In this document: piece after piece, positions 22,928-55,286 of the stretch
How positions within the stretch are numbered: the first letter of the stretch is position 1
Layout of the letters: each line of letters starts with the position of its first letter
From: Darksidea phi
Taxonomy: Eukaryota; Ascomycota; Dothideomycetes; Pleosporales; Lentitheciaceae
NCBI GenBank assembly: GCA_030770425.1
Contig: JASJFT010000147.1
Coordinates: 1 to 64,000 of the forward strand
DNA length: 64,000 nt
Direction of reading: 5' to 3'
Program-made: the position numbers and the translations under genes
Notes under the pieces: generated by a model
Seen by the model: only the letters and a program-made list of their open reading frames with translations
What the model was told of the DNA's origin: nothing
Database searches by the model: none

Positions 22928-22934
22928 CCTGTAG

Positions 22935-23093: not shown

Positions 23094-23641
23094 CAATCGG
23101 GACGGAAACCGGTATAATGCGGGGGTACTTATGAGTAATATTCTGTAGACCCGCCAGCCATGAACGCACGGAAGAGTGAATTCGCACGAGTAAAAGACCG
23201 ATGATGTGACTGATCTCCAGCCTCCTCACTTCAAGGCATGAGCTCACGGCAATGTCAGGACGGGCATGTCTCAGAGGAGTTCTCCCACGTTTCTCTTCAG
23301 CCTACTTATTACGCATGAGCGAGAACAGCAGTTACAAGATAGGCTTGCATCTCAGCCAATCCGGTGTAATACCAACAATATGCTACAGTCTACCGATGTC
23401 AACTTTGCATGAGCCACTTTGTCTACTGACTTTTGCCAATTGGCTTGCCAAGCAAACAGGGCAGTGTGCGTATAGTCATTTGACCTAGTAGTTGAGAGGT
23501 TGCATACTACAGCTATCTCCAAGTATAAGAGGCACATGAGACGCCAGGCTTGCCATAACAACACAATCAATCAACTTGAACTTCAGCTCGGCTAAATACT
23601 CGATTCAACCGACGTCTTGAGTCTTTGAGGGGTCAATTGCA
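23094..23641. other. Intergenic, no gene supported
   Basis: Normal base composition. Two overlapping ORFs of 72 and 78 codons on opposite strands lack any recognisable motif and I regard them as chance. The right end is probably the promoter and first non-coding exon of the microprotein gene. Confidence 0.4.
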
Positions 23642-24781: not shown

Positions 24782-25371
24782 CAGGCCGTTGGCTATTAAC
24801 TGGAAGTCGCGAAGTCTTTGTGAAGATTTCGGATGTGTACTCGTATGTCATATCGTTTGTTTTGAAGAATCCGATATCTGCATCTAGTCAGCAGCGTTCT
24901 GAGATAATTTAGAAAAAGTACGTGCCACTCTGTGCCTCCATCCTACGAATGTAATCGTATTCTGACTCGAATGCCTTAGAACTTTTCAGACTGCTTATTG
25001 CTGGCTTCATCATTGCGACATCCGAAAGTTCTGTTGTGCTGCTCGCAAGCGAGAGGTAGAAGATGGAGAGCGCTGCGAAGCGAAGCTTTACTCCGAAGAG
25101 ACCTAAGGGCGGTGAAGGAAGGACACCAGCTTGGCGTGCCAATCTTAGTCACAGTCGCGCCAAGGCTGCCTAAGTGGGGCTGTTGCCAGGTAAGCCGCGT
25201 TGCGCGGACGTCAAATAAAGGTAATGCGGCAACCCAGCGGACTGGTGTCTTGTATATAATAGCAAATCGGGGTTGCTTCCATCTAGAACCGGTTATGCAG
25301 CCAGAAACAGTAGGCTGAAGACGCGGATGGAAGGGGAACTAGCGCCGCAGCCAATGAGCGATGGCGCTTGG
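24782..25371. other. Intergenic; one weak 77-codon ORF (24,909-25,142, minus)
   Basis: The minus ORF has a hydrophobic stretch (L-R-F-A-A-L-S-I-F-Y-L-S-L-A) that could be a signal peptide, followed by a short charged C terminus ending G-T-Y-F-F. Start context and codon use are not convincing, so it is not called as a gene. At the right end, TATAAA at about 25,378 is a candidate TATA box for the + strand cysteine-rich gene. Confidence 0.3.
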
Positions 25372-28715: not shown

Positions 28716-29501
28716 TTAAAGGTGCACGTCTTGTTCCTGGGCTTTAAGCCATGCTCGGAGTTTGCCTACAGCGTAATCATCGTGGTCCTGCCTTGAATCG
28801 GCGAAGTCTTGTTCAATCCATCCTGGCGTACCAGCAGTAATGAGCTTACAGCCAAAAGGCTGACAGGAACCGAAATCGATGAGGATAGGTGTATCATACT
28901 CATCAATCATAATGTTTGAAGGTGTAAGGTCGTTATGGGCTAGCCCGAGCTTGTGAAGATGGCTGACTGCTGAAGCGACCTTCCTCATGCATTCCGCAAC
29001 GTCGAAATCTTGCACACCGTTTTCAAGCCGCTCCTTCAACGTCATAGGATATCGTTCCAGAGCAATACCGACAATGCGACCACGTTTAATTAGGCAGCCG
29101 TAATATCGAACGATGTTTGGATGTGGGTTATGCAGCAGGAGCTCGAGTATCTCAGCTTCTTGCAGAATGAGCTTCGGTAAAAGCCCTGTCCCAATGAAAT
29201 CTTTGTGTAGCTTCGGACCTTTTACAAAGATGTTGGTGTTTATGGGTAATGTAAACTTTGTGATGCTCCAGGGTGCCTTTGGGTATACATCATCGTCTGG
29301 GAGACGCTGTAGGCTTTCCCTGATGTCCTTTGAGGTCAGATCGTACTTCCTATGACCGGACTCGCCGAAATAGGCTATGTACTGATCGGTTATAAATCCG
29401 AATGACGAGTAGAGGAATATTGGATTGCCGTCTTTGTCGTCTTCGGCAGAGAAGGCTTCGTAAAGAGGAGATAGATCTCGCGCAGACTCTATCCGTAGCA
29501 C
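28716..29501 (-). CDS. Protein kinase-like protein, 261 aa
   Basis: Compact kinase fold. The N-terminal 75 residues are not kinase-like. The N-lobe lysine is probably K94 (I-F-V-K) and E115 (L-I-L-Q-E-A-E-I-L) fits helix C. The catalytic loop is H189-N-D-L-T-P-S-N-I-M-I-D, with N replacing the usual R of HRD; D191 and N196 are kept. D209-F-G-S-C is an intact metal-binding motif. The activation segment ends G-T-P-G-W-I-E, and D-D-Y-A-V-G-K-L starts helix F, after which the protein stops. The C-lobe is therefore short, as in a large class of fungal orphan kinases. Serine/threonine kinase activity is inferred. Found near three other kinase-fold genes in this window. Confidence 0.8.
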   Translation of the reverse strand: MLRIESARDLSPLYEAFSAEDDKDGNPIFLYSSFGFITDQYIAYFGESGHRKYDLTSKDIRESLQRLPDDDVYPKAPWSITKFTLPINTNIFVKGPKLHKDFIGTGLLPKLILQEAEILELLLHNPHPNIVRYYGCLIKRGRIVGIALERYPMTLKERLENGVQDFDVAECMRKVASAVSHLHKLGLAHNDLTPSNIMIDEYDTPILIDFGSCQPFGCKLITAGTPGWIEQDFADSRQDHDDYAVGKLRAWLKAQEQDVHL

Positions 29502-30214
29502 ATCACCGGCTTTATTTCGAGGTAGGAGAGCGTGGTAGTAGCGTATGAGCGGTGAAACGATATCGATCTAGATAAAAGCCAACATTAGCGACGCGTGGAA
29601 AGGTTGTGCGTGATATTCATACCAGGCTACCTGTAGATTTGAAGACCTCCCATACAGACTGTATCCATCTGCGTAGGTTCGGAGGCATGTATACCAATCG
29701 TGAAGGCTCGGTGTAGTGCTGCTCAAAGCTTGCGACAATCTTGTAAGCTGGCGAAGTCGTGGGAATGGCGTTGGTCCATGCGAATCTGGTTGCGTTTGAT
29801 CGCTTGATGGGAGAAAGACGGCGCAGCAGCCGTGCGCCGTCACGAGCCACAGCCATGGCGAGCCACACTCGACGCCGCAGACTTGGCTTACTCGCCGCTG
29901 TGGCACATAGCATACAGTAATCATTACATAAGCGGCTGAGATGGTGACAGGGTCATCTCGCTTATTTAGGAGGTACCGATCGGCGTGGCGACGTCGTATA
30001 ACGAGGATAGTCGTTTCGTCGAGAGGCAGCTATACCATCTGCGTAGGCTGGAGGAAAAGCTTGTATAGAGAAGACGGTTAAGGAAGGAGGAATCGGCCTT
30101 CTTGGTAGGCTATCGAGGGAGCCAATACCTAACGTGGAAGATAGAGCTGGTGTCCATGGTGGATACGATACGAACGATAGCGTAGGGGGTAGGAGGTTCG
30201 GCGTTATCGGCGAA
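29502..30214. other. Intergenic; degenerate coding-like traces
   Basis: A 98-codon minus frame (29,617-29,913) is arginine-rich with no motif. From about 29,970 to 30,180, one + strand frame reads like a degraded retroelement gag (R-Q-L-Y-H-L-R-R-L-E-E-K-L, then a stop, then further open sequence), adjoining the LTR fragment at 30,215. No live gene is supported. Confidence 0.35.
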
Positions 30215-31654: not shown

Positions 31655-33869
31655 TTAATCTTCATCAAAGATTTGAAGGACATTATCCAATATGGTAATG
31701 ATGACTCGAGCTTGTAGACCGGCGTCTGCCATATTACTACCCTTGTGCGGCCCCATCACTGATGGTCTGGTTGTGTCAGTGAGAGTTATAAATCCTGATC
31801 CGGGAGATACTTACGCCCAACAGATGCCGAGGTTGGCCGCACTCATGCGATTCACTTCAGAAGACCGCTCTACGCGACGAAGGTGTAGCATGAGGGCACG
31901 AAGCGTCGCATAATTTGGATCAGGAAGCGCGTTGATAAGAGCATGCATCGAGTCGCGTCGCATCGTGTCATCGTCAATGCGCGCAGCGTCGATAAATTTG
32001 GTGTAGAAATCTTCGGTAAGAAGTGGATCGGGCAGTTCACGGAAGAACTGCTTCAATAGACCGGCAACGCTGTGGACATCGTGTTGAAACGCTTCAGGGT
32101 TGCGAAAGTCGACCTGGGTGGCATCTGCGAGGAGTCAGCGAGGATGTAAAAGATCAACACAGCAACATACTACTGTCAAACAGACTCTTCATTGCTTGTA
32201 TGTGAGAAGTAGTGCCTGGAATGCGGTAGATGCCCTCGACTTCTAGACCATAAAGATCGACGGCTTGGATGCACTGATATACTACCAATGGCACGGGAGA
32301 GCTGTCTCTCGCAAACAGTTGATCGAGATTGACGCCGAACATAGGATTGACGGGGGGCGAAGAAGTATTGTAAAGCACACCACTCGTCTGTTGGGCTGCC
32401 GCTTGCCCCGTAGGACCTCGAGGATAGTCCGATTGAGAATAGGGGTTTGGAGCAACAGGAGAGTAGACTGGCACGCCATACTGGGACGGATACTGTTGCG
32501 GTGGCTGCTGTTGTTGAGACTGGACGGTGTTGTAGCTCTGATAGCTTGGCTGCTGCACAGGTTCAGCTTGGGCTGAGGGCTGATACTGTAAGGGCGACTG
32601 AGCTGACTCGGACTGTGGAAGTGCAAAGGATGGCGGAGGTTGGCTCTGCAGTTGCATCGACGTCCGGCGAAGGGCACCTGCGGCGGGGGGCGGAGTGGGC
32701 TGCGCTTGGTTCGGAGCTTGCGTGGGATGCTTTACATAGTGCACATCAGAGTAGCCATCGGGGATTGAAGGCACATGGGGCGCCATTCCCAAGATGAAGT
32801 CATCGAAGTCTTTCTCGTTGTTGATCTGGTAGATGAGGTGGTTGATGCTCGGTGGCGGATGGGCGGTACTCCCCTTGAGCGGCTGCGGACTGACCACCAG
32901 GCCGTTGTTGACGACTAGCTTCTCGTTGAAGGACGCATATTTCTGCATCTCCATGGTGAGGGCGGCATCGATCTCTCGGATGAGGTCGACAACGCTAGCG
33001 ATGGTTTGGGGGCGCGTCGTGGCCACCAGCTCTTTGCGGTACGCCTGCGCTGTCTGGACCTTGGTGGCGTAGTCCTGGTCGGCGGCCTGAAGCTTCTTTT
33101 GCAAGTCCTCCTCATGTTGGGCGGCCGACTTGGGGCCCTTGAGGCCGAACTTTCTGCCCGCGCCCGTGTCTCCGGTCTTGACGCGATCAAGGTCTTCGGC
33201 GAGCTGGTCGTACTTGGACTTTGCCTTTTCGGCCAGCTTCCCGGTATCCCGCACCTTCTGCTCGGCGGCGAGCCACTGCTGCTTTACCGTCTTGCGGCTC
33301 GCATCGATCTTGGTAGCCAGTTGCAGCAGGTTCTCGTGCATGGCATGGAGGGCGAGGCCGAACTGGGTGCCGTTGTCGGCGAGGCGCTCGTTGGCGTGCA
33401 TGACGTGCTCGAACTGGGTCTGGTAGCTCTCATGGCGCCCCTCGGGCTTGCGTACGCTGTCGAGCGCCATGCGACTGAGCTTCCTCAGGCTGTTCGCGTG
33501 CTCCTCTTCGGTTGCGCCGCGGCGCTTGAGGAAACTGGCAAAGTCCTGCCTGCGTCAGCGGATATCCCGCCGAGGGGAAGAATGCGGCTCCGGTACCCTA
33601 GCGCTGGTGATGCTGGCCTTGATCCGGTTCATCAGCAAGGAGTAGCCAATGTCCGAGTACAGCACGTCGTGCACTTTCTGCTGGACCTGCGCGTCTGGCG
33701 CCTCCTGCTTGAGGTCGTGCGGCTGCACAGCGGGCGCGGGCGCTTCTACTGGTGGGGCCATGGGCCCATCTGTGTGGTGGGTATCGCCGTTGGCGGCGTC
33801 GGGAAGGTTGAAGTCTGGATTGAAGCTGTCGGTGCTCTCCATCGGAGGCAGCGTGGGTGGGGCGGCCAT
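31655..33869 (-). CDS. F-BAR and RhoGAP protein (Rgd1 type), 689 aa
   Basis: Four exons, which I joined by splice sites: 33,597-33,869, 32,171-33,545, 31,815-32,124 and 31,655-31,766. Introns are 51, 46 and 48 bp; the 46-bp one begins GTATGT and the 48-bp one GTAAGT. The spliced frame is 690 codons. Residues about 70-306 form an F-BAR (FCH) domain (S-I-T-S-A-R-D-F-A-S-F-L-K-R-R) with long coiled helices; about 360-490 is a Q/P-rich linker; RhoGAP starts near 493. The arginine finger is R532 in G-I-Y-R-I-P-G; K-Q-F-F-R-E-L-P-D-P-L-L and N-L-G-I-C-W-A-P-S-V-M follow. The family stimulates GTP hydrolysis by Rho proteins at the membrane, and yeast Rgd1 is of similar length. Start chosen at M-A-A-P-P; an upstream in-frame ATG exists. 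This is a conserved housekeeping gene amid accessory DNA. Confidence 0.93.
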
Positions 33870-35490: not shown

Positions 35491-38103
35491 CTAGTCTTCC
35501 GTTGTATGCATTTTGGCTTCAGTATAATGTTCACGACACGCGCGGGTAGTTGGATGATCCTTCCCAAGGACGGTGTGGTACCCAGCGCATGCTCTCTCGT
35601 ACAGAGCAAGTGATTCGTTGTAGCAATGTTGGTTTGCGAGGAGGTGGGCGAGGTAGTATATGCTCATCAGCGTGTCTGGATGCTCACGCCCGAGCACCTT
35701 CTCTCGCCGCGCCAGCGTCTGTCTGTTCATCAACTCCGCCTCTTCGTACTTGCCCTGGTTGTCCAGTACCAGCGCCAAGTTGCTCATGCTCCTCAGCGTC
35801 TCTGGATGCTCACGCCCGAGCACCTTCTCTCGCCGCGCCAGCGTCTGTCTGTTCATCGACTCCGCTTCTTCGTACTTGCCCTGCCTGTCCAGTACTAGCG
35901 CTAAGTTGCTTATGCTCATCAGCGTGTCTGGATGCTTACGCCCGAGCACCTTCTCTCGCCGCGCTAGTATCTGTCTGTTCATCGACTCCGCTTCTTCGTA
36001 CTTGCCCTGGCTGTCCAGCACCAGCGCCAAGTTGCTCATACTCGTCAGCGTGTCTGGATGCTCACGCCCGAGCACCTTCTCTCGCCGCGCCAGCGTCTGT
36101 CTGTTCATCGACTCCGCTTCTTCGTACTTGNNNNNNNNNNNNNNNNNNNNNNNNNNNNNNNNNNNNNNNNNNNNNNNNNNNNNNNNNNNNNNNNNNNNNN
36201 NNNNNNNNNNNNNNNNNNNNNNNNNNNGAGCACCTTCTCTCGCCGCGCCAGCGTCTGTCTGTTCATCGACTCCGCTTCTTCGTACTTGCCCTGCCTGTCC
36301 AGTACTGCTGCTAAGTTGCTCATGCTCGTCAGCGTGTCTGGATGCTTACGCCCGAGCACCTTCTCTTTCCGCGCCAGCGTCTGTCTGTTCATCGACTCCG
36401 CCTCTTTCCACCGGCCTCCAAGCTCCCTTGCTAGTCCTACTATCTCTATACTGCTCAACGTCTCCGCATTCTCTTCGCCGAACACCTCTCTCCTAACCTT
36501 TATTGATATTATTGCTATATGCTCTGCCTCGTCTGCTCTTCCTCTTTGCCAGGCGTACCATGCCGCCTTGTATAGTAATAGGGCCCACTCCTTAAGTGAC
36601 TCCTTCTCGTTAGGCCGCTGTACCAATGCCGCCCTCGCGTGTGGGAACAGCGCCTGGCATTTCTCCCAGTTCTCGTGTTGTCCCGTAGGCAGCTCTGCGC
36701 AAAGGTTAGAGATGAACTGCTCCCTCCATTTGTCGAGTTGGCCCTGGTTTTCTAGCCACGTGCGTGTAGCCAGCTGTACCAGGCTGTGCATCTCGAACGT
36801 TTTCGCGTTTCTAGTAACTGTGATGAACGAATAGTCTCGTAGTGTAAGAACATCGTCCTCAAATCCGTCGTGGACCCTAACAGCTGACATGTGTTCGTTC
36901 GCTGTGCCGCTCTGGCTGCGGAGCAGAGCTTCTTGAATTCCTTGTCGATCGAAGAAGCTCATAAGCGACAGCAGATCCGCTGCTGACTGTCTTTTGTGTC
37001 GTATGTGGTCGAACGATATCTGCCACGTTATGAGGACAGAGTTACTAGCTGCTTCGTCTCGGCGAAGATGGCCTGCCTCCTGGTTTAGCAGGCTTGTCTT
37101 TCTGCTATCGCTCTGGCGGTACTCCTCAAGGTACCGCTGTACTGAGCATCTTGGCGCTCGTTCCCGAATGTATGCTGCCGCCTGCACAAGGGCGAGCGGC
37201 ATGTAGTCGAGCGCCGTCGCTAGCTCGGTAATGCCGTCATCCCTGCCACCCTTGCCTCCCAGCTTCTTATGAAGTAGAGCGTGTGCAGCCGCATCGTGCA
37301 TTGGCTTGATCGGTATGATATCGCCCTCTTCTACAATCTGCAGCGCCGCACGCCTGGTTCGACTGGTTACAAGAACCGAGCCGTGCCTGCTTGGAGGCAG
37401 ATACCTCGACAAGTGCTGCCGGAGAGCGCCGCCATTGCCGCTTCCGCCGCCGTCGGCTTGTGTCTTCTGGCTATTGCTCGGTAGTGGAGAAAGAACAGCA
37501 GCATCGTCGGCGTTGTCGAGGACCAAGAGCCATGGCCCGTTTTTCTCGTTGCGGAGCCAGTCGTGAACCAGCTTAAACACATCCGCTTGTGCGTCCTTCC
37601 GACCTCGAACCTTGACTTGCTCTGCTATCTCCCGGTAGCTTTGCTCGAGTCGAGCTGTGTTGCTGGCGTGCGCCCAGAACACCCACGTCTCCCGCGACTG
37701 CTCAGCGGTACGATAGCAGTGCTCGATGGCCAGCTGGGACTTCCTGTGTTCGTGTCAGGTGCGCGCACTGACCCAAGGGTCTTTCTCTCTGGACTTACCC
37801 CACGCCGCCCAGGCCCACCAGCGCTACTCGCGATGCTGGTGCAGAGCATCGTTCGCGTATCTGATCGAGCAGCGTTCCCCGGTCGACAAAGTCCGCGTCG
37901 CGACGGAACGGCAGGAAGCACGAGGGCTGTGGTGGAGTCTCGGGACGTTCTGAGCGTTGTTAGCGCAGCGTTGGTCGAAGCGGAAGCGAGCACTTGCCGG
38001 CAGGGGCATGGAAGTGGCTCTCGATGTGGCCAGAGTTGTTTCCCACCTGCACTCCCTGGTTTCCCGGGCCTGCGAAGGTAGTCGTGATGCTAGGGTGAGC
38101 CAT
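35491..38103 (-). CDS. NLR: amyloid-type motif, NB-ARC, TPR repeats (gap inside)
   Basis: Three exons: 37,998-38,103, 37,799-37,949 and 35,491-37,743. Intron 1 (48 bp) uses a GC donor (GCAAGT), branch GCTAAC and CAG; intron 2 (55 bp, GTAAGT) splits the P-loop. Residues 10-31 form a motif F-A-G-P-G-N-Q-G-V-Q-V-G-N-N-S-G-H-I-...-F. NB-ARC follows: P-loop G81-L-G-G-V-G-K-S88, Walker B W-L-L-V-L-D-N-A-D-D (about 157-166), V-T-S-R-T-R (about 211-216), M-P-L-A-L (about 267) and M-H-S-L-V-Q (about 404). From about 470 come 42-residue TPRs of kinesin-light-chain type (G-K-Y-E-E-A-E-S-M-N-R-Q-T-L-A-R-R-E-K-V), nearly identical. A run of 97 N interrupts them and breaks the frame, so copy number is unknown. 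Fungal NLRs of this class sense non-self through the repeats and activate a partner with the same N-terminal motif; that partner is the next gene upstream. Confidence 0.92.
35692..36479 (-). repeat. 126-bp tandem TPR-coding repeats
   Basis: The landmark GAGCACCTTCTCT (plus strand) recurs at 35,692, 35,818, 35,944 and 36,070, exactly 126 bp apart, and again at 36,228 and 36,354 (126 bp) beyond the gap. Copies differ by only a few bases, which suggests recent duplication or concerted evolution. Across the gap the spacing is 158 bp, 32 more than one unit. Confidence 0.95.
36131..36227. other. Assembly gap, 97 N, inside the TPR array
   Basis: 97 unknown bases. With 126-bp units, an in-register gap would be 65 bp, or 65 plus a multiple of 126. 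The given length therefore shifts both repeat register and reading frame. It is an assembly artefact, not evidence of a broken gene. Confidence 0.97.
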
Positions 38104-38420
38104 TGCATTGCTGCGACAGCGACGTGGGTTGTGTGTTGTTGGTTGTCGCGGACCCTGCGCAGAGACACAGCTGAGCTGCTCTTGTGCATAAGGCTGGGCT
38201 GGGCTGGCAAGGCTGGGCTGGCGCTTCAGCTGGCTGCCAGCGTCTTCTATCTACAACGCTGCGCCCATCTCGCGCGCTGCCTAACAGTCTGCTCGCCGCC
38301 GTCGCTGCCTCCTGCAGTGAGAGTGTTTTGTGTATCTCATGGTAGATCAGAAACGCAGAAGTCATGATATTCGAGTCGATCAGACACTCTCAATTAAGTT
38401 ATAAGTAAAGTCAACCTCTA
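38104..38420. promoter_or_regulatory. NLR promoter / effector 3' region
   Basis: 317 bp between the effector stop and the NLR start, both on the minus strand. Most of it (38,108-38,315) is one arm of a large inverted repeat. It contains a run of GGCTGGGCTGG-type short repeats (38,190-38,225). The tight spacing suggests co-regulation, but an independent NLR promoter is the simplest view. Confidence 0.6.
38108..38315 (-). repeat. Inverted repeat arm 1 (NLR promoter)
   Basis: Read on the minus strand it starts GCAGGAGGCAGCGACGGCGG and ends GTCGCTGTCGCAGCAA, five bases before the NLR ATG. The outer 85 bp are almost identical to 39,411-39,495 on the plus strand. The middle contains about 45 bp extra (CCAGCCCAGCC repeats) that arm 2 lacks. 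Confidence 0.9.
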
Positions 38421-39221
38421 CTAGCTTGAACCACCTTTTCCAAATGTAAACCCCGTCATTGCGCCAGAGTTGTGTCCGACCTGAACGCCAGTATTATGAC
38501 TGCCCGAGAACACTATGTGGTGTGACCTCTCGGTACTATTTGTAGCCTTTGCAAACGCCTCCTCTAATAGTTTGTCCTGGGCAGCGGCAATCTCTCTCAA
38601 CATCGAGATGCCCTTAATTCCGCTAACAGTCGATACCTTAACGTCGTACAGCTCACGCTGAGACTGTTGGCTGGCCGGAAAAAGCTCTACTAGGCTGTCA
38701 ACCAACTCGGTGATGTCCTCGATTAGTCGTCCAAACTGTTTCTCCTGGTACAGTGCCCACTTTGCCTTTTGACGAAGGCCCGATCTATTCTGACGCTCGA
38801 TGGCCAGTTGTCGCATCTTATGGTGGAGTTCTGCTATGGCTGGATCCAGGTCCGTTTGCGGGTTGTACAGTACAAGGCTACCATCCTCAGGCTTTGTCCG
38901 ACTCTTATACTTGTCCGACACGCCTTCGGCTTCGGCAAACAACTCGAGAACCTGGCCAAGCAAGGACTTAGCATGTATGATGGTTGCTTCCGACCCGAAC
39001 GGCCCCTCAAGTGACACTGTATCTCGAAGATCATCACCCAGACCCAAAGACTTGCCCCATCGTGACAAGCGAAGTCTTGCGTTGTCCAGCTTGAGTTGGC
39101 TGGTTTGATAGTTCTTTCCAAATGCACGGCCAAGCTGAACGAATTCGAAGCATTCGACGGTATTGTTAAACAAGCCGGCAAGGGCGACAACGCTAACGAC
39201 AAGGCCCGCTACCTCTGCCAT
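38421..39221 (-). CDS. HeLo-domain cell-death effector with C-terminal amyloid-type motif
   Basis: 266 residues, one exon. Residues 1 to about 225 form a HeLo domain (prion-inhibition/propagation family, as in HET-S): a hydrophobic N-terminal helix (V-A-G-L-V-V-S-V-V-A-L-A-G-L-F) then C-F-E-F-V-Q-L-G-R-A-F-G-K-N-Y and L-R-L-S-R-W-G. In this family the domain is a helical bundle whose N-terminal helix inserts into membranes. Residues 238-260 are F-S-G-S-H-N-T-G-V-Q-V-G-H-N-S-G-A-M-...-F, which aligns without gaps to residues 10-31 of the adjacent NLR and has the V-Q-V-G core of RHIM/PP-type amyloid motifs. The C terminus is glycine-rich and flexible. Inferred role: membrane-acting executor of NLR-triggered cell death. 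No introns, no RIP damage. Confidence 0.92.
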   Translation of the reverse strand: MAEVAGLVVSVVALAGLFNNTVECFEFVQLGRAFGKNYQTSQLKLDNARLRLSRWGKSLGLGDDLRDTVSLEGPFGSEATIIHAKSLLGQVLELFAEAEGVSDKYKSRTKPEDGSLVLYNPQTDLDPAIAELHHKMRQLAIERQNRSGLRQKAKWALYQEKQFGRLIEDITELVDSLVELFPASQQSQRELYDVKVSTVSGIKGISMLREIAAAQDKLLEEAFAKATNSTERSHHIVFSGSHNTGVQVGHNSGAMTGFTFGKGGSS

Positions 39222-39332: not shown

Positions 39333-39495
39333 GCAGGAGACAGCAGCGACGGCGGCGAACAGACTGTTAGGCAGCCAGCCTTATGTACAAGAGTAGCTCA
39401 GCTGTATCTCCTTATGCATAAGAGCAGCTCAGCTATGTCTCTGCGCAGGGTCCGCGACAACCAACAACACACAACCCACGTCGCTGTCGCAGCAA
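39333..39495 (+). repeat. Inverted repeat arm 2: second NLR-type promoter, truncated
   Basis: Plus-strand copy of the NLR promoter: GCAGGAGACAGCAGCGACGG, then CAGACTGTTAGGCAGCC, then TCTCTGCGCAGGGTCCGCGACAACC and so on to GTCGCTGTCGCAGCAA. A 31-33-bp unit (CCTTATG...CTCAGCTGTATCT) is duplicated inside it. Identity stops five bases before where the NLR ATG would be, and RIP-type AT-rich DNA follows. This reads as the promoter of a lost divergent NLR copy. Confidence 0.85.
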
Positions 39496-39800
39496 CCAGG
39501 AATAATCAGGTCCTAGAATAGACGGGTCCTAGGAATAAGAAGATCCTAGGAATAAAAAGATCCTAGGAATAATTAGGTTTTAGAACTATATAAGTCGAAT
39601 GTATAAGTTCTATTAAAATAAGTAATATTATATTTATTATTTTATAAAAGACTAGAGAAAATCTAATATATATATCTTTAGTTTAACCTATAGTATAAAA
39701 CTTTATATTATAATACTATAATATTTTAATACTTTTATTTAATAATAATCTCTTTTAGAAGCTCTATTAATAATCTATTATAGTATTTATAAACCCTATT
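39496..39800. other. Edge of right RIP island; short tandem repeats
   Basis: Begins with four or five copies of an 18-20-bp unit (AGATCCTAGGAATAA) at about 39,500-39,580, then unclassified AT-rich DNA without CpA/TpG up to the 5' LTR of element A copy 2. No gene or NLR coding trace recognised. Confidence 0.6.
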
Positions 39801-39986
39801 TATTATATCTACTTCTACCGAAGGACTCCTAGATTATTATTAACCTAGCTATGGTTATATACCGGACCCTATATAATCCTATATTCTACTATTATATCTT
39901 CTTAAGGATTTATCTTATCTCTATCTAAATATAACCCTTTTACTATCTTAGTATTTCTATATCTATCTACCTATATATACCTTATA
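39801..39986 (+). repeat. 5' LTR of element A copy 2
   Basis: 186 bp, the C-to-T mutated equivalent of 20,770-20,955 (TATTATATCTACTTCTACC for TGTTACGCCTACTTCTACC). Confidence 0.9.
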
Positions 39987-42900
39987 ATTTAAATCCTTCC
40001 TACTTCTTTTTAAGAACTAGTAGTACGGCGTCGATACTAAAAGCCGATACTTTAAAAGTTCTTATTAACTATACTATACGATATCTATTTAGAGCTATTA
40101 GTATATCTTCTTATATTATATACTCGAAGAAGAGTATCTACTCTAGTATCTATTTATTTAGTAGACGAAATAATCCTAATACGTAGCTAGTCGATAAAGT
40201 ATACTAGTAGTATCTTAAGTTTAGTAAACTACGAGTTTAAGAACTAGAATTAGATAATAAGGATAATTACTAGCTAGGGAATTTATTTAACTCTAAAAAT
40301 ATTTAAAAGGGTTAATATATTTCTAAAATTCTTATAACCTATACGCGGTATAATAGTAGAAATATTTTAAAGATATCTAATAAGTTACTATCTTTTAATA
40401 GAATTCTAATAATAGTTATAACTAATAGAGACTACTAATCTATACGAAAAAATAATAGAATATCTAGCTATAAAAATACGGCTTATAAAAGTAGGTCCCT
40501 ACTATACTAATCTTTAACTTCTACTATATTACTAATATTAGAAGCTAATAATACCCTAATAGATAGTAATTACCTAGGTATATTTTATATTATATCTATT
40601 TATACTCCGGCCCTAAGAGAAGTACTTCTAGCTAAAATAATAGAAATTCTAATCGACCTTTAATATTAGGATATATTAGTTAACTAGATTAAGACTACTT
40701 AAATAAATTTTAATATAGTCTAAGTAGTCTTCGAACTAGCTACGAGTACTCTTTAGACTATAGCTAGTCTACTTTTAGTAGACGATACTTATTAAGGACT
40801 ATTTAATCTAATTAAGGTTAGGAACCCTTCTATACTAGACTTATTAAAGAAAACTCTAATAATCTAAGTCGTAGATTATTAGATTAGAGATATTAATAAT
40901 CTCTTTTAAATTAATTTTATTACTACTAATACCCTTAAGTATACTTTATAGATTATAATACTTATTAAGAATAATATATATTATAACCTCTTAGACTAAG
41001 TAATTAATAATAATAAAATTATTATATAGTTTTAGTTATAAACGAAGCTTAAAAGCCTTATAAAGAATTCTATCCTAATAAAGTTTAATAACTACTTTAA
41101 GTTTTAGAATATTAAATAGTATTAAGATAATAATTTTAACTTCTTCTTTAATTACTTTATAATATATAAAGCTATCTTAGAGGTAAAGTCTTTTAGTAAT
41201 AATATAAGTTCTAATATATTAAAAATATCTATAGTTTAGAGTAAGTATTTAAAATCTTTATATTATAAGATATAAAGGAATAGCTAGCTTAAAAATATTT
41301 AAACTTAGATATAGTTTAAATATACTTTATAGAATATAAAGATAGTAGTATACTTTATTTTTATACTAACTACTCTTCTAAAGGTTTCTAGTCTTAGTTT
41401 AACTATAAATAGAAAGTATACTATATCTTTAGTAACTTTAAGTAATTCTAACTAGAAAAAATAAAATTAGAAGTCTTCTTAATAGAGTAATACTAGATAG
41501 TCTTTATTAAGAACCCTATTACGCTCTAAGAGTATAATATTAACGTTCTAATTTAAGACTAACTAAAAGAAGAACTATTAGAAATACTACTTTAAAGGTA
41601 ATAATAGATTAAATAAAACTTAAGAAGAGAAGATTAACTTATTCTTAAAAAAAGATAAGCTCTAGTTACTAATATTACTATAATACTACTAGGGCTAAAT
41701 ACTAATAATAGATCTTTATAGATTATTAGTAATATAAAAGTATATCTCTTTATAGATATTTTAATATAAGCTTAGAGTCTTTTTAATATAGAATTAAACT
41801 TAAATATTATTAAGAAGAACCTTATACTATAGTAGAATCTTTTTAAAATATTATTATATATAAAGTCTTAAATATATTAAGTCTTTAATATATTACTATA
41901 TCTAGAAGAGCTATATATTATTATAATAATAATATAGGACTCTTAAGATATAATAAGAATAATAGATTCTTAAATATTTTAGACTATCCCTATAGATAAT
42001 TATAATCTTATTCTTAGCTAGTTATAGCTATATAAGGTAGACCCTTAAATAGATTACTAAAAGGAATCTTTTAAATAGTAGAATAGGAAAGTAGTAGTTA
42101 AGTATATTAAGATTAAGATAATACTTAATAACCTACTATAATAGCTATAATCTAGGGAAAAAGTATACGTACTATACCTAAGAAGCTTTTATACTTAATT
42201 ATTTATAAGTAAAGAAGAGTACTAACTCTAGTATTCTACTACTATAAAGATTATAGAGTATTTATAAATATCTATTAATAAGATATAACCTCTAAAAGAT
42301 AATAAACTTTAGAATACTTAATATTAGAATAAGTAGAGTCTACTTTAGTTAAAGAACTAGACCCTATAACTCTATAATTATCTTATCTATTATATAAAAT
42401 AATACCCTAAACTAGTATAGCTATCTAAGATTATAGTCTCTTAGGTTATAATATTAATAATAAATATCCTTTTATAGAGAATTATAATTCTTTATTAAAA
42501 GGGGTAATAGAAGTTTAGAAATTATTTAGATACTTTTTATAATAATTCTAATAAGAAAATTAATCTTAAGGAAACTATAAAAGTACTAGATTACTTTTAT
42601 AATTAATTAAGGTACTTTAGTTCTAAACTTACTAGTAGAATTACTCTTAACTTAGAGTATAACTATACTATTAATCTTAAAAAGAAAAAAATACTATTAA
42701 ATCTCTTTATTTATAATCTCTTTAGAAGAGAACTTAAGATTTTAAGGGAATATCTCGATAACTCTTTAGAAAAGAGATAGATTTAATCTAATAAATCTCT
42801 AGTAGAAGTCCTAATACTTTTTATATCTAAAGTTAATAATATACTTTAATTATATATTAATTATAAGGATCTAAATAAAGTAATAATTAAAAATTATTAT

Positions 42901-45900
42901 TCTATATTCCTTATAAGCGAGATACTAGACTAACTATCTAGAGTTAAGATCTTTACGAAACTTAATCTTTATAAGATATATTATTAATTATATATTAAAA
43001 AGAATAATAAGTAGAAGATAATATTTAAAATATACTATAGTTATTTTAAATATTTAGTAATACTATTTAGTCTTATAAATATATTTATTATATTTTAGTT
43101 ATATATCTATAAAGTCTTAAATAGTCTATTAGATAGAATATATATTATCTATTTAGATAATATTCTTATATACTCTAAAGAGAAGGAGGATTATAAATAA
43201 TATATTTATAAAATTCTTAAGAGATTATATAATTAGGAACTTTATTATAAAGTCTTAAAGTATACCTTCTTTATAAAGTTAATAGAGTTTCTTAGCTTTA
43301 TTATAACCCCCTATAGGGTAATTATAGACCTAGTATAAGTCTAAATAATTAAAGAGTAACTAGAACCTAAGAGCTATTAGAATATTTAAGTATTTCTTAA
43401 ATTTATAAACTTTTATTAATAGTTTATATATAACTACTTAGATATTATTTATTTACTTCTAGAATATATAATCTTTATATAGAATCTAATACTAGCTTAA
43501 TAAGATTCTAGTAAGAATATATTAGTAGAAAAGTTAAAGAAAATTAAGAAGAGTTCTATAAGGTAGTATACTTCTTAATTTTAACTAAAGAATATATATA
43601 ATATATTTCTTATACTTTATAAACTCTTTATAAAAGTTCCTATTTTTTAATACTTTAATCTAATAAAACCTATAATAGTTATTACTAATATCTTCGAATT
43701 TATTATAGTAGCTATTCTATTATAACTATAAATAATAGTACTCTTAATAGAAAAATACTAAAAACTAGTTATATTCTTTAGTTATAAGTTTATTAGACTA
43801 TAGATTTAATAGAATACTTATAATAAAGAGTTATTTACTATTATAGAAACCTTTAGATAGTAATAATATTATTTTAAATATACTCTAAATACTATTTATA
43901 TACTATATAACTATAATAATTTAAAATATTTTATAATTATAAAGGTACTCTTATCTAAGTAAGTATACTAGATTAAAGAATTAGTTTAGTTTAATTTTAA
44001 GATTAAATATAAGTCTAGTATAAAGAATCTAGCTAATATACTATTAAGATAACCTAATTATATCGAAGACTTTTAGCTTAGAAAGAGAAAGATATTAAAA
44101 AATATTATACTTCTTATACTCTAAAATAAACTCTAGGTATAAATATTCTAAAAGTCTATAGCTTTATATACTATAGATTAAATAGTATATAAATTTAATC
44201 TTACTAATAAGAATCTATAAAAGACTTATTAGATATTTAAAAATAGTATAAATTATTCTACTATAAAATCCTCTAGTATAATACTAGTTTTTAATAATAT
44301 ATTATCTATTAACTTTAATCTATCTATAGATAAGAATAATAAACCTAAAGAGTAATTAGAAAACTTAAATCTAGCTTTAATATTTCTTTAGTATTATAAA
44401 GTATTTCCTACCTTTATATTATATAAGTCTTTACTAAAAGTTATAAATAATAACTTACCCTTTAGCTAGAAAACCTCTAGGCTATTATTAAACTATATTT
44501 AAGAAGTATAAGAATATAATATAGTCTATTATAAGAATATATAGTATATATAAAAGTCTAAGAGTAGAAAAGAATAAAAGAATATACTCTTATAAATTAT
44601 AAATCTAAAGGATATTCTTTAGAGAGTAGAGAAAGTATAGATTTCTAATAATAAAGCTCTTTATTAAGCTATTCTTATAAAGAATTATAATAATCCCCTA
44701 GAAGGTTATTATAGAGTAGATAAAACTATTAAACTTCTATAAAGAAAGTATTATTAGTTAAAGCTTTAAGTAGAGATTAATATATATATATAAGACTATA
44801 TAATATATTAAATAAATAAAGTATAAAGGTATAAGCTATAGAAGTTATTAGAATTAATTTCTCTACTATAAAAGCTATAGTATAATTACTTCTTAGACTT
44901 TATTACTAATCTACTAGAATCTAAGAATTCTAAGGGTAATATCTACGATATAGTACTAGTACTCGTTAATCGCTTTTTAAAGCTAGTCTAGTATCTATCT
45001 ATAATAAAGAATATTACTATAAATATATTAACTAATTTATTATTTATAGAAGTATTTATAAAGATTAAATTCTTATTATTACTAATCTTAGATTAGAGCT
45101 CTATCTTTACTAGTAAATTCTAATTAAATATATACTTTTATTTTAATATTAAATAATAAATAAGTATAGTCTTTTACTTATAGATAGATAGCTAAACTAA
45201 ATATTAGAATTAGAAGCTTAAAGTATACCTATAGATATATCTAAACTATTAATAGAATAACTAGTATTAACTACTTTTAATAGTAAAATACGCGTATAAC
45301 TCTAAGATTTATTTAAGTTATAGTATATATTCTATTAAGATCGTAATAGGTATTAAATCTAAGGGTTTTAATAATATAAAAGATAAGTATTAGCTCTATT
45401 AACTACCTAGTAATTAAAGTATAGATAGAAAGATCCTAAGTATATATTAAAGAGTTATTAACTTTCTAACTAGCTAGATATAATAATTTTTTAATACTTA
45501 GAATATATTAATCTATACTTAAGAAAGCTAGTAATACTAGTATAACTTAAAGAGAATAAGTAAGTATTTTACTATTAGTAAAAAGGTAATTCTAAAAATT
45601 ACTAATATTAAGACTAAGCGTCCTTTAAAGAAGCTAGATATAAAGTACTTAAAACTCTTTATTATATAAACTAAATATAGAAAGCTAAGCTACTAGTTTA
45701 AGCTATTCTTATTAATATTCTAACTATATTCTATCTTCTATATATTACTTTTAGAGAAGTAGATTAAATTAAGAGAAAATTTAAACTTTAAACCTAGTCC
45801 TATATAGTATTTAGAGCTTAATAACGACGACTAATATAAAGTCGAAGTTATTCTTATCTATAAGATAATATATAATAAGAAGCTCTTTCTTATAAAGTAG

Positions 45901-48210
45901 CTAGATTAGCTATATAAGAATAGTATATAGAAGTCTAAGACCTCTTTTAATAATTATAAAGAGATTCTTATAGAATATTAGATAAATCTAAATAATTAAA
46001 TATTAAATTATTTAAAATAAAAAACTACTAAAGAAGTATTATAAACTTTATAAAGAAGTAATAATACGTATAAAAAATCCTAAAGAGATAGACTATATAA
46101 GTAGTATTAATATAAAGAAAGAATTAAAAGATCTAATTAAGAGATATTCTTAAAACTCTACTTAGAGGTTACTATATAAGTAGAATAATTAGTTAAGAAA
46201 AGAATACTATCTATATTAGTAATAAGCTATAACTTAAAAGATTTAGTAAAACTAGTCTTTATATATTATAATAATAGATAAGATATATATCTAAAAGAAT
46301 ATATACTTAAAAGTAATTAGTTAGACTAGACTTTTAATATAAATATTTATTCTATCTATATATCTAGTAATATCTATTAAAGAGAAATCTTAGCTAAGTA
46401 TTATATAGTCTAAAGACGACCTAAGTAAGCTCTACGTACTAGATAAGAAGTTTTTAAAAAAGTTATATAATATTCTCTTCTAGGGGATAATAGATATTAT
46501 ACCTCTATTAATAATATTTCTATTAGAAATATTAAGACTATAATAGTACTAATAATACTTATAATTAGTAGCTCTAAGGGGTACTTTAGTTAAGAAGTTA
46601 TACTTAATAAAGTAAGTCTTATAAGTAGTAAAGGCTATAAAGTTAGTAGATACTAGATAGCTAATACTACCTAGTCTATACTAGAGGAATTAGTATAGAA
46701 AGCTATTAGAAAGATAGTAGAATATATCTAATAGTACTAGAAGTTAAGCTTATATAATATAGCTAGAGTCTAATATAATTCTATCTTACTACTAGTATTC
46801 TTAACTAGATATTTCTACTTAGCCTTATACTAGCTTTAACTAGTATTAATATTAAAAGTATAGAATTATATATTCTACTAAACCTTTTTAAGTATCTTAG
46901 AATCTATATTCTTATTATTACGAGTAGTCTAGATATTATAATACTATATACGCTCTATAATAAAGGTAAAAAGGTTAAAGTAATAATAAAAAGTAGACTT
47001 AATCTATATAAATTATTAGTAGAACTATATTAGTAAGGTAGAGAAAAGACTAGTATATATTACTAAGTAGGTCTAATAGTAAGCTTTATACCTATTATAG
47101 GTAGTATAAATATTAGCTTTCTAGTACTAGTCGCTTAAAGTAATCTAATAGAGCTTAGTTATATTAAACTCTTATATAAACTAGAAAAGATAATTTATAT
47201 ACTAATAGTATATAAGGAGAGGCTAGAGTTTTAAATAAATAAAAAGAGTATAGATATACTTAAAGAGGATAGTATTACTATACTAGCTAGTAGAGGTAAT
47301 TATAATAAGAAATAGGATCTTAAAAGTATTAAGAAATAAAGTAGAGAAATTTAAAAGTAAATATATCTTCTTATACTTATACTAAAAGAGATCGTTTTAT
47401 ATCTAAGCTAATAGTATCTTAAATACTTACTAGTAAGAGCCTAAAATATAGAAATAAAGGTATTTAAAGAGATATAATATATAATAATTTATTACCTTTT
47501 AGATAAATATTTATAAAGATATAAATAGAATTTCTCTTATTAGAAAAGCTATAGGTAAATAAGTAATTTAATATAATTATAAGTTATAATAGATAGTAGC
47601 TAATAATTACTAAGTACTACTAGGTTATATTATTATAATAGATAATTAAGACTAAGTTAAATAAGATTTAGACTAGTTCTAAAGCCTTTATAAAGATATT
47701 ATAAGTAAATAGAATAACTATAAAGGTTATACTTAGTAAATAGCTCTTATATAAAGATATTAAGTATTTACTAAATAGAAGTTATTAAAAATTATCTATA
47801 AGAGAAGTAATAATATTATTACTACTAGTATAAAGACTTATAAGGATATATATAGACTATAAGCTATAATAATAATAAATAAAAGTTATAAATATATATT
47901 AATAAGAGATTAATACTTAAGTTATATATACTTTTTAACTAAACTAATTATAATTATAAGATTAGGTCTAAGAATTATAAGATTAAAAAGACTATAAAAA
48001 CCTCCCGTTAAAGTAGTAGGACGGAATATAGATATTAAATATCTAAAGAATCTTCTCTATAAAATTATTTTTTTCTTAGAAATAGAATTTTTTAAGAGTA
48101 TAAATACTTAGATAAACTCTTCTAAAGAAAGTAAGAGAACTAATAGAATATATTATAATAAAATAACTTTCTATAAGGACTAGAATAGTCTTTAAAAAAG
48201 AGGGAGGCTA

Positions 48211-48286
48211 TATTATATCTACTTCTATTAAAGAACTTTTAGATTATTATTAATCTAGTTATAATTATATATTAGATTCTATATAG
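48211..48286 (+). repeat. 3' LTR of element A copy 2, left piece
   Basis: First 76 bp of the LTR, including the target site TATAG (48,282-48,286). It continues at 55,287. Confidence 0.9.
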
Positions 48287-48715
48287 TATTATAAATTATA
48301 TATAAACTATAAAATAATAGCTAATAGAAATACCTAAGGTAGAACCTATTATAGATTCTAATAAGAAATACGATATAGATCTTATAATTAGAGAATAGAA
48401 AGTTACGTAATAGATCTATAGATCTATAGTCCTTAGTAGATATAGATCCTATAAATCTACGAATCTATAGATTAGTAGATCTATTAAAGGATAGAGTTAT
48501 AGAGCCTATAGATCTATAAAAACTAAAATTAATATATAATAACTACGAATCTCCTAGATAGTTTTCCTTCCTTATAGTTAATTCGAATCTAGATTAAACC
48601 TTATCTTTTAACGTAATTAAACTATTATCTATCTATTTCTTCTTCTCTATTCCTATCTTAAGTATAAACTCTAAATAAGGCTAAGTAATCTATTAAGCCC
48701 GGACCCCGTTTAATA
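48287..48715 (+). repeat. 5' LTR of element C
   Basis: 429 bp, starts TATTATAAATT, ends CCCCGTTTAATA. The end retains GGACCCCG, a GC run without CpA. Repeated at 54,853-55,281. Confidence 0.9.
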
Positions 48716-51700
48716 TCTTAACTATCTAGTAGGTAGGAATAGCTAACTACGATAGTAGAAGAAAGAACCTAATAAAGTAGAGCGGCGTAGCTACTAACTT
48801 AGGCTAAACCCTTAGAGATAGGAAGCTATAGGAAATTTAGTTCCCTAAAAGATAGTATAACTATAGAAAATTTCGAAAGAGTTATTAAGAATTAGTATAT
48901 ATTTAAAAAAAGAAAAGATATATTAGAAGTCTAACTTATAGAATTAATTATCTAACTTTAGAAATATATAAGTAAACTATTAAAGCTTAAAGAATTAAAG
49001 AAGTTTAATAGAATAAGATTAAAGCTTAGAGGATTTTTAGCTAATATAGTAATCTACCTCGATCTTAATAGAATAAAGTTACCTACTAAGAGTAATAAAG
49101 TATTATTTATAGTAGCTTAGTTTATAGAAAAGGTTATTACTTAGTTTAAGATATATTTAAACGAATAACTACGACTACCTAAAGCCTAGTAGAGTAATAA
49201 GATAAAGATTATCTTCTTAAGTTATAAGTACTTTAAGAATAAGTTATATATTACCTTTAAAGATATAGACTTAGAGAGATTAGTAGAATAAAAAATTATA
49301 TATCTTAAATAAACGAAATTTACTATAATCTATATATCTAAGTTTAAATAACTCGCTATAAAGATTTAATAGGGAGAAGTAGCCCTTATATTATAATATT
49401 ATAAAGGACTAAAAGACTATATCTATTATAAAATAATTTAAATAGAATAATTCTAGACTATAAGAGGACTAATTAAATAAGCTATTAAGATCGATAATAA
49501 TCTTTATCTCTAGAACCTAGAAAGAAAGAAAAAGATCGAATTCTACGAAAAGAAAAAGAAAGAAAAATACTATAGACTAGAGGTAATAGTCCTAGAGACT
49601 AGTTTAGAATCTAAAAAGAGAAAATAGAATTCTAAGAAATAAGAACTCTATAAAAAATAAGTATACTTTAAATATAAGAAGTAAGAATATCTAGTAAAAG
49701 ATTATAGGTCTAGTTTAAGAAGAGAGAAACCCTAATATACTTAGTAGAGTAAGAGGGATAGAGTAGCTATAATATAAGAATATAATACTATATATTAAAT
49801 AACTTATATATACGACTAGTATAAGATATACTATAAAGTTAAGTTAAATACTAGCTATTAGCTATAGAAATAATAGGTAACTACGACTTAGAAGTCTTAG
49901 AGAAGAGTTTTATTCTTACTAGAAGTATAAGAAGAAGTATCTAAGGGAGATTTATTTATAGAATAGGAAGATTTTAATAATACTATAAATATACTATTAT
50001 AAATAGTTAATAATAGCGATAAATTCTTAGAACTAGAAGATAAAAATCTAGTTACGATATATAAGAATACTAGATATCTATAGATAATTCGACTATCTAA
50101 GAAAAAAATAGGACTAGTACTAGAACTTAATATAACTTATACTTAAGTCTTATAGTTTATAGAAAAAACTATAATATCTATAATAATATAGAAGATCTAT
50201 AAGAAATAGTCTAGATCTTATCTAATATATCGACTATTTAAAGATTTTAAATAATAGATTAAATAAAACTTTATTATAATAGATCTTATACCTAACTAAG
50301 AGACTTAGAAGAAAATATAGTATATTACGAGAATAGTTAATAAGAAATAACTAAAATATATAGTAATCGAATAATAGATTTCTATATAAACGATCTTTAT
50401 AAAATATAATAATTAGAGATATAAGATTAATCTAAAAGACGACCTATAATATAAGATAAGATATCTAGTATATTTTAAGATTATATAGATTTTATATATA
50501 TAAAAAGAATATAAACTCTATAAAGAAGTAAAATAAAAAAATAACTATTATCTAATAAAAGACTATAATAAAAGGATTATCTAAGTAATTATACTAGAAG
50601 TAATATATAAATAGTAATAATCTAAGAATTAATAATAAAAAGAATATATACGAATTATACTAGGATTACTCTTACCTTTAAACTATATCCTAGGAAGACT
50701 ATAGTATAAATATTCGAAGAATAAATACCTAAAATATATCTAGACTAAGATTAATATAAAATATTAGTCTAAGAAAATAAGAATCTAAGAAACTAAAGGA
50801 TAAGACTACGTCTACCTTTAAGAAACCTACTAAGGGAAAAGAATTACTACTTTAATTAATAGTAGAGCTACTTAAAACTTTATTAGTAAGAATTTTATTA
50901 AATAAAAGAAGATTCCCTAGTAAAAGAAATAATACCCTAGTATTATATATACTATTAAAGGAGAACTATTTAATAAATCTATAATATACGAAATTAAAGA
51001 TAAACTTAACCTATAAAGATAGGAAAAGGAAAATAAAATACTTAATATAATTAAAATATTAGAAGACTAAGATATAATTCTAGGAATATTATAGCTATAA
51101 GAAGCCGACCCTTAAATTTAATAGACGAACTAATAGATATTATTTCTATAATAGAATCTAGATATAACTTAAGAGAAAAATAATAATATTCTAGAACTTT
51201 ATAAGGAATAGGAAGAATTATTTATAGAATTTAAGAAAAGCCTACTCTAGTACTAGTCCTAGGATTATACGATTCTATTATAGGAAGAAAAAACTCTAGA
51301 ATTCGGACTAATTTATAAGTTAACTAAGAAAGAAGAAAAGATTATAATAAAATATCTTAAAGATAACCTTATAAAAAAATATATTTAATATTTAAATTTA
51401 TCTATAGGATATCTAGTTCTCTTCGTATCTAAGAAGAGTACTATAGAACTATAATTATATATCGATTACCGAATACTTAATAATATTATAATTAAAAATC
51501 GATACTTCTTACCTCTAATATTAGAAATATAAGATTAACTAAGAAAAGTTAAATAGTTTATACGACTAGATATCTAAAATATATACTACTAAATCTAAAT
51601 TAATAAAGATAAAGAATAGAAGATAGTTTTTAGAACTAAGAAAGGACTATATAAGTATTAAATAATATCTTTTAAACTTACTAATATACCTACGATATTC

Positions 51701-55281: not shown

Positions 55282-55286
55282 TATAG

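What the first reader, a model, noticed from the sequence alone, without database searches (positions are those of the whole stretch)
35491..39221. NLR receptor and HeLo executor side by side, sharing a RHIM-like amyloid-type motif
The HeLo protein ends, and the adjacent NLR begins, with the same motif: F-x-G-x-x-N-x-G-V-Q-V-G-x-N-S-G-x-[MI]-...-F. Residues 238-260 of the effector and 10-31 of the NLR align without gaps. Known fungal pairs (HET-S/NWD2; HELLP/PNT1 with the PP motif) work by amyloid templating: ligand binding to the repeats clusters the NLR, its motif folds into an amyloid seed, the effector's tail copies the fold, and its HeLo domain attacks the membrane. The V-Q-V-G core is that of the animal RHIM and fungal PP class, yet the executor domain here looks like HeLo of HET-S rather than the HELL domain of HELLP. 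That pairing may be a new domain combination.
Basis: partly seen in the sequence, partly recalled or inferred. Interest (0 to 1): 0.92.

Follow-up and report, generated by a model that had tools for sequence, protein, structure and literature searches.

The report
Fungal amyloid-wired cell-death gene pair
Two neighbouring fungal genes, a sensor and a membrane-attacking executor, begin and end with the same short RHIM-like sticky motif; this is a clean example of a cell-death switch type already described in fungi in 2012, not a new combination.

Summary
The minus-strand gene at 39221-38424 encodes a 266-aa HeLo protein (PF14479, 1.5e-52) with a C-terminal Ses_B/PP motif (PF17046, 6.7e-9). The next gene (38103 to 35491) encodes a PP-NB-ARC-TPR NLR whose first exon carries the same motif (4.5e-9). 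The executor is HET-S-type HeLo: it matches PDB 2wvn at 8.2e-37 and gave no PF17111 (HELL) hit. Best reading: a two-gene amyloid signalosome in which NLR clustering seeds a PP amyloid that templates the HeLo tail and unleashes its N-terminal helix. Templating and killing are inferred, not shown. The proposed novelty fails: HeLo-PP beside PP-NB-ARC-TPR was described in Arthroderma in 2012 (PMC3321046 section 8). 110 of the 120 listed homologs carry both domains, and 25 contig lengths recur in the HeLo and NLR homolog lists. Predicted covariation of the two motifs was not found (13 pairs, p = 0.40). Extras: inverted copies of the NLR's 5' flank bracket the HeLo gene; the genome also holds a HET-s-type HeLo protein, an NLR paralog with a degenerate motif and a fragmentary one.

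The parts
38424..39221 (-). HeLo executor gene, 266 aa (stop codon at 38421-38423); HeLo domain residues 6-207, hydrophobic N-terminal stretch (residues 4-19)
   Evidence: ORF and Pfam PF14479 1.5e-52; PDB 2wvn 8.2e-37 over 1-226; mean hydropathy 2.2 over residues 4-19
38451..38522 (-). PP (Ses_B, RHIM-like) motif at the executor's C-terminus
   Evidence: PF17046 whole-genome hit 39.4 bits; 6.7e-9 in the protein
35491..38103 (-). NLR receptor gene PP-NB-ARC-TPR: exon 1 38103-37998, exon 2 37949-37799, exon 3 from 37743; stop at 35491
   Evidence: splice model in frame up to the N run; Pfam TPR_10 2.3e-21, DUF7779 1.6e-10, NB-ARC 8.2e-4 (sub-cut-off)
38020..38100 (-). PP (Ses_B) motif in NLR exon 1
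   Evidence: PF17046 36.1 bits, 4.5e-9
37950..37997 (-). intron 1, GC-AG type with a CTAAC branch-point-like site; joins the PP exon to the NB-ARC exon in frame
   Evidence: a GT donor 4 nt further on gives a wrong frame; homologs show the same joined RPETPP frame
37744..37798 (-). intron 2, GT-AG
36131..36227 (.). 97 N inside the TPR array (register and frame differ on its two sides)
38108..38315 (-). 5' flank of the NLR, arm 1 of an inverted repeat
39333..39495 (+). inverted copy of the NLR 5' flank, upstream of the HeLo gene, arm 2
   Evidence: 86 nt at 98%, 36 nt at 92%, 33 nt at 97%; local alignment with gaps; no copy elsewhere in the genome at E <= 0.001

Best explanation
A two-gene NLR/HeLo amyloid signalosome of the PP-motif class in a filamentous ascomycete (probably Pleosporales or near, judged from its closest named homologs). 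Shown: the two genes, their domains, the shared motif, and conservation of both motif-bearing proteins in many fungi. Inferred: an unknown ligand binds the TPR array; NB-ARC oligomerises; the clustered N-terminal PP motifs fold as a RHIM-like cross-beta seed; the seed templates the C-terminal PP tail of the HeLo protein; the HeLo domain then exposes its hydrophobic N-terminal helix and permeabilises the plasma membrane, killing the cell in non-self or parasite defence.
For: HeLo and Ses_B Pfam hits above cut-off on the executor and Ses_B on the NLR; HeLo structures of the HET-s/HET-S protein matched at 8.2e-37 to 2.8e-34; 110 of 120 listed homologs (of 334 found) carry both PF14479 and PF17046; a PP pattern that required only G3 and N/S at 6, G/A at 8, 12 and 16, N/S at 14 was found in 109 of 121 executors, with N6, G8 and G16 in all 109 and Q10 in 107; 25 contig lengths recur in both homolog lists, against 0 to 1 for lists offset by 1 to 3 bases, with consecutive locus tags in Kalmusia; position 33, where a substitution removes pore-forming activity in the HET-s/HET-S pair (PMC5485727 passages), is A here and is P in none of 113 scorable of 121 executors; PP amyloid signalling and killing were demonstrated for HELLP/PNT1 in Podospora (PMC7885112 passages).
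Against: No experiment on this pair; amyloid fold not tested; within-pair motif covariation absent (p = 0.40); 10 of 120 listed executor homologs lack PF17046; the TPR frame across the N run is unverified; an out-of-frame ATG precedes the NLR's ATG by 5 nt; the AlphaFold model is too poor to test the fold (mean pLDDT 45.6); NB-ARC is below the Pfam cut-off here.
Confidence: 0.87

Rival explanations
1. The pair is read correctly but the locus is no longer functional: the NLR is damaged in its TPR array and the pair is a relic between RIP-degraded blocks.
For: Frame and 126-bp register change across the 97 N; RIP-degraded blocks on both sides ((CA+TG)/(AC+GT) 0.01 and 0.00; GC about 0.2); in the same genome one NLR paralog has a degenerate motif (C17) and one is fragmentary with stops (C8).
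Against: The N run has no reliable length, so the frame change says little; the HeLo ORF is intact and 92% identical to its nearest homolog; splice sites and P-loop are intact; the locus itself has no RIP signature (index 1.17); other NLR paralogs in the genome have open frames without stops (e.g. C435, C5, C39).
Confidence: 0.1
2. The shared motif works as an ordinary reversible homotypic docking module rather than a self-templating amyloid.
For: No amyloid test here; the motif is only about 18 residues.
Against: PP motifs of the same class form prions and activate the executor in Podospora (PMC7885112 passages); the conserved N/G/Q pattern fits amyloid ladders (same paper's discussion).
Confidence: 0.08
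3. The motif similarity is a by-product of recent local duplication or gene conversion between neighbours, without function.
For: 27 nt of the motif DNA are 85% identical between the genes (family D7), and an inverted duplication exists in the same interval.
Against: The duplicated arms lie outside the motifs; the motif is present at both positions in homologs from many named species.
Confidence: 0.02

Closest known systems
HeLo-PP / PP-NB-ARC-TPR STAND gene pairs of Arthroderma otae and A. gypseum (Daskalov et al. 2012, PMC3321046, Fig. 6A legend and section 8)
   Same: Same executor domain, same PP motif class, same NLR architecture (NB-ARC, TPR), adjacent genes
   Different: Different lineage; I saw no experiment on the Arthroderma pairs in the passages read
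HELLP/PNT1 of Podospora anserina and CgHELLP/CgSBP/CgPNT1 of Chaetomium globosum (PMC7885112 passages)
   Same: PP motif, PP-NB-ARC-TPR receptor, receptor and executor in adjacent genes, membrane-targeting executor
   Different: Executor there is HELL (HeLo-like); here HeLo PF14479 with no PF17111 hit. No third Ses_B hit, such as a PP lipase, on this contig
HET-S/NWD2 of Podospora anserina
   Same: HeLo executor homologous to the solved HET-s/HET-S domain (8.2e-37); NLR next door
   Different: Tail is one PP motif, not the two-repeat HET-s domain (no PF11558 hit); NLR is NB-ARC-TPR, not NACHT-WD
Goodbye-HeLo-PP proteins (14, e.g. Aspergillus nidulans AN2022.2, Penicillium)
   Same: HeLo followed by Ses_B/PP, 43-47% identity over the HeLo-PP part
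   Different: Extra N-terminal Goodbye domain (PF17109)

Membership tests
PP-motif HeLo/NLR signalosome (2012 Arthroderma type) | Executor with HeLo domain PF14479 | tested here: met
   1.5e-52, residues 6-207; PDB 2wvn 8.2e-37
PP-motif HeLo/NLR signalosome (2012 Arthroderma type) | C-terminal PP motif on the executor | tested here: met
   PF17046 6.7e-9 at 235-257; fits the core NxGxQxGxN (PMC9815663); the longer consensus as printed in PMC3321046 has one more spacer and L where this has V
PP-motif HeLo/NLR signalosome (2012 Arthroderma type) | Adjacent NLR with N-terminal PP motif | tested here: met
   4.5e-9 in exon 1, 2.1e-7 in the joined protein; NLR ATG lies 317 bp after the HeLo stop codon
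PP-motif HeLo/NLR signalosome (2012 Arthroderma type) | NB-ARC nucleotide-binding domain | tested here: inconclusive
   PF00931 19.1 bits, cut-off 23.5; P-loop GLGGVGKS present and several close homologs annotated PF00931
PP-motif HeLo/NLR signalosome (2012 Arthroderma type) | TPR repeats at the C-terminus | tested here: met
   TPR_10 2.1e-63 after and 2.3e-21 before the N run
PP-motif HeLo/NLR signalosome (2012 Arthroderma type) | Amyloid templating from NLR motif to executor and resulting cell death | not testable with these tools
   needs in vivo prion and death assays
HELLP/PNT1 | HELL (HeLo-like, PF17111) executor domain | tested here: not met
   no PF17111 hit in the scan at E <= 10 (HMMER's filters drop most hits above about 0.1); HeLo scores 178.9 bits
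HET-S/NWD2 | Two-repeat HET-s prion domain (PF11558) on the executor | tested here: not met
   no PF11558 hit in the window protein, while an unlinked HeLo paralog of the same genome has it at 9.2e-23
RHIM proteins of animals | G-(I,V)-Q-(I,V)-G core (as worded in PMC7885112) | tested here: met
   GVQVG in both motifs
RHIM proteins of animals | RIP kinase or adaptor context | tested here: not met
   the motif sits on HeLo and NLR proteins

The most novel reading that the evidence does not exclude
The executor gene lies in an invertible segment: the 5' flank of the receptor is present twice, in inverted orientation, on either side of the HeLo gene, so recombination between the arms could flip the executor while leaving the same upstream sequence beside both genes. 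Alternatively arm 2 is the orphaned promoter of a second, lost receptor, which would fit the two NLR homologs that share a contig length with one HeLo homolog in each of two Alternaria species.
Probability: 0.08. Interest if true: 0.4.

Novelty: new member of a known kind. Interest (0 to 1): 0.22.

Why it matters
It adds a large set of HeLo-PP/PP-NLR pairs to a class in which the PP experiments described in the passages I read used HELL-type executors and a lipase. Such a pair would let one test directly whether a RHIM-like amyloid can fire a HET-S-type HeLo domain. The genome also holds a HET-s-type HeLo protein, so insulation between two amyloid channels on the same executor domain becomes testable. 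As a discovery it is incremental.

Tried and rejected
New domain combination: rejected (PMC3321046 section 8; 110 of 120 listed homologs). HELL executor: rejected. Motif covariation within pairs: tested, not found. Of 19 pairings drawn up, 13 were used; the 6 dropped were A. burnsii x2 and A. alternata x2, whose HeLo models lose the motif at their ends, and O. disseminans 98476 and Didymella, whose NLR models lack the N-terminus. The 9 metagenome pairs of the 25 shared contig lengths were never put into that test because their NLR models cover only 77-87% of the query. First splice model with a GT donor at 37993 gave a wrong frame and was replaced by the GC donor. A second NLR body right of the HeLo gene: no NLR match by tblastn (E <= 10), and only the arms themselves by blastn, in 39400-64000; no other place on contig C54 in the own-genome search at E <= 1e-10, in which 80 of 152 candidates were scored. 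AlphaFold model of the executor from 27 sequences: mean pLDDT 45.6, not used; no fold search was run. In the contig-length comparison I transcribed 120 HeLo rows but only 119 of 120 NLR rows; two labels printed (P0236, P0238) are therefore off by one (P0237, P0239), as the lengths show. PMC12881547, PMC7889193 and PMC12258605 (passages) added no HeLo-PP case beyond the above.
Full report
What is there. The minus strand of 35491-39221 holds two genes in the order executor, receptor. The executor is one uninterrupted ORF, 39221-38424, 266 residues. Pfam places HeLo (PF14479) on residues 6-207 at 1.5e-52 and Ses_B (PF17046) on 235-257 at 6.7e-9; no HELL model (PF17111) appears in a scan at E <= 10. 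By sequence it matches the solved HeLo domains of the HET-s/HET-S protein (2wvn 8.2e-37, 2wvo 1.4e-35, 2wvq 2.8e-34). The receptor's ATG is at 38103, 317 bp after the HeLo stop codon. With a GC-AG intron (37997-37950) and a GT-AG intron (37798-37744) it reads in frame from the PP motif through RPETPPQPSC and the P-loop GLGGVGKS into a TPR array. Homologous predicted proteins show the same joint (e.g. P0131, P0144, P0158), and 19 of 120 listed NLR homologs have motif and P-loop in one predicted protein. Many of the others cover only 76-87% of the query; I infer that exon 1 is missing there because introns were not modelled. An out-of-frame ATG 5 nt upstream of the NLR's ATG and a 97-N run in the TPR array with different frames on its sides remain as blemishes.

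Naming of the motif. That PF17046 (Ses_B) models the PP motif is my inference. The motif here fits the core NxGxQxGxN given for PP in PMC9815663 (passages), and 14 Goodbye-HeLo proteins, the kind from which PP was defined, carry PF17046. The consensus string printed in PMC3321046 has one more spacer than the sequences here.

Is the shared motif more than chance. The two motifs begin at residues 238 and 10, with 11 of 23 identical ungapped; the ungapped score is 57 against a maximum of 46 in 5000 shuffles of the two 60-residue ends. Over the whole genome the Ses_B model ranks these two places first (39.4 and 36.1 bits); of the other four hits one is over the cut-off (26.9 bits, C223) and belongs to the different motif cluster described below.

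Conservation. Of 120 listed homologs of the executor (334 found at E <= 1e-3), 110 carry both PF14479 and PF17046 and 10 lack PF17046. Named sources include Zopfia, Clathrospora, Paraphoma, Alternaria, Pyrenophora, Ophiobolus, Cenococcum, Lophium and Puttea; that most are Pleosporales is recalled, not looked up. A PP pattern (requiring G3) was found in 109 of 121 executors, query included, with N6, G8 and G16 in all 109 and Q10 in 107; 23 of 120 listed NLR homologs (2921 found) show a looser pattern in their first 70 residues. 25 contig lengths occur in both lists, seven of them under 20 kb (5733, 7996, 11897, 12450, 12595, 15966, 19857); with lists offset by -3 to +3 bases the overlap is 0, 0, 0, 0, 0 and 1 (119 of 120 NLR rows transcribed). 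Kalmusia has consecutive locus tags for the two genes. This is good evidence for linked pairs, short of seeing the DNA, which no tool offered for these fungi. The predicted covariation of the two motifs was not found: 10.62 identities over 17 positions within 13 pairs against 10.53 under shuffling, p = 0.40. The executor motif is so conserved that the test has little power.

What it most likely does. By analogy with PNT1/HELLP, where the PP region forms a prion and activates killing (PMC7885112, passages), and HET-S/NWD2 (PMC5485727, part 1 of 4 of the text and passages), the receptor's clustered PP motifs should seed an amyloid that converts the executor's tail and lets the HeLo N-terminal helix enter the membrane. 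The executor has a hydrophobic stretch at residues 4-19 (mean 2.2). At position 33, where one substitution removes pore-forming activity (PMC5485727), two solved chains read P and H (that P is the inactive HET-s form is recalled). Here it is A, and none of 113 scorable executors of 121 has P. This fits a killing-competent protein but does not prove it. An AlphaFold model was too weak to use (mean pLDDT 45.6).

What is known. Daskalov et al. 2012 (PMC3321046; passages, section 8) describe HeLo proteins in Arthroderma otae and A. gypseum with a short C-terminal extension matched by the N-terminus of an adjacent NB-ARC-TPR STAND protein, and define the PP motif from these and from Goodbye-HeLo and sesB relatives. 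That is the architecture found here. Wojciechowski et al. 2022 (PMC9815663, passages) list PP among motifs associated with both pore-forming and enzymatic effectors. In the listings of two searches (20 of 123 papers, 20 of 265) I saw no title or abstract about the homologs collected here, but I read only passages, so this is not a claim of absence from print.

Surroundings. The pair sits in GC-normal DNA between RIP-degraded blocks (about 1-20.6 kb and 39.5-55.9 kb; (CA+TG)/(AC+GT) 0.01 and 0.00 against 1.17 in the locus). The HeLo gene is bracketed by an inverted repeat: the receptor's 5' flank 38108-38315 and an inverted copy 39333-39495 (blocks of 86, 36 and 33 nt at 98, 92 and 97%), with no copy elsewhere in the 51-Mb assembly at E <= 0.001. 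Arm 2 ends at the position equivalent to 5 nt before the receptor's ATG and abuts the degraded block. An inversion with duplicated breakpoints or the promoter of a lost second receptor could explain it; no NLR remnant was found to the right.

Same genome, related systems. An unlinked NLR on C17 is 76% identical over residues 36-536, but in its exon 1 the palindromic glycines are replaced; another on C8 is fragmentary with stops. A HeLo paralog on C120 carries a HET-s-type tail (PF11558 9.2e-23), so this fungus has HeLo proteins on two amyloid motif classes. On C223 a PNP_UDP effector, a divergent NACHT NLR and a downstream NB-ARC-like NLR fragment share a third motif.

Verdict. Observation confirmed; mechanism supported by homology but untested; novelty of the combination refuted. 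A new member of a known kind, interest low to moderate.

Noticed in passing
window 38108-38315 and 39333-39495: Inverted repeat bracketing the HeLo gene; arm 1 is the receptor's 5' flank. Two NLR homologs share a contig length with one HeLo homolog in Alternaria burnsii (19857 bp) and in A. alternata (68160 bp), so arm 2 may have belonged to a lost second receptor.
   Followed up: partly
window 1-20600 and 39500-55900: AT-rich blocks with near-total loss of CpA/TpG (index 0.01 and 0.00) flanking the gene island.
   Followed up: partly
L011 / L014 (G000:C223, about 597100-601970): PNP_UDP effector ending in a GFQAGIIQG motif between a divergent NACHT NLR and a downstream NB-ARC-like NLR fragment (with stops) that both begin with GFQAGIIHG: one enzyme effector, two receptors.
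   Followed up: partly
L036 (G000:C17:71468-72976): 76% identical NLR paralog whose PP motif has its palindromic glycines replaced; no HeLo hit on that contig.
   Followed up: partly
L013 (G000:C8, about 20455-23532): Fragmentary NLR paralog with a PP motif, divergent from a patatin-like phospholipase ORF (PF01734 3e-7).
   Followed up: partly
L004 (G000:C120:69418-70149): HeLo paralog with a HET-s-type prion-forming tail (PF11558, 9.2e-23) in the same genome.
   Followed up: partly
P0170, P0068, P0245 (metagenome proteins): ORFs in which NB-ARC/TPR or TPR runs in frame into a HeLo domain at the C-terminus (HeLo 629-826 and Ses_B 860-882 in P0170): possible receptor-executor fusion in reverse order; misassembly not excluded.
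   Followed up: partly
P0250, P0248, P0255 (Arthroderma) and P0246 (metagenome): HeLo-PP-PP-NB-ARC-TPR (two Ses_B stretches in P0250), HeLo-PP-NB-ARC-TPR (PP by eye in P0248), HeLo-NB-ARC/TPR (P0255) and HeLo running into a PP-like stretch and P-loop (P0246, by eye) in single predicted proteins: merged gene models or steps between the two-gene and one-gene forms.
   Followed up: partly
P0242 (metagenome protein): HeLo followed by a PP-like tail and then WD40 repeats in one ORF.
   Followed up: no
window 32157-33554 (-): Neighbouring F-BAR (FCH) / RhoGAP protein gene; APH-like (23939-24847) and two kinase-like genes (28719-29567, 61984-62877) elsewhere in the window.
   Followed up: no
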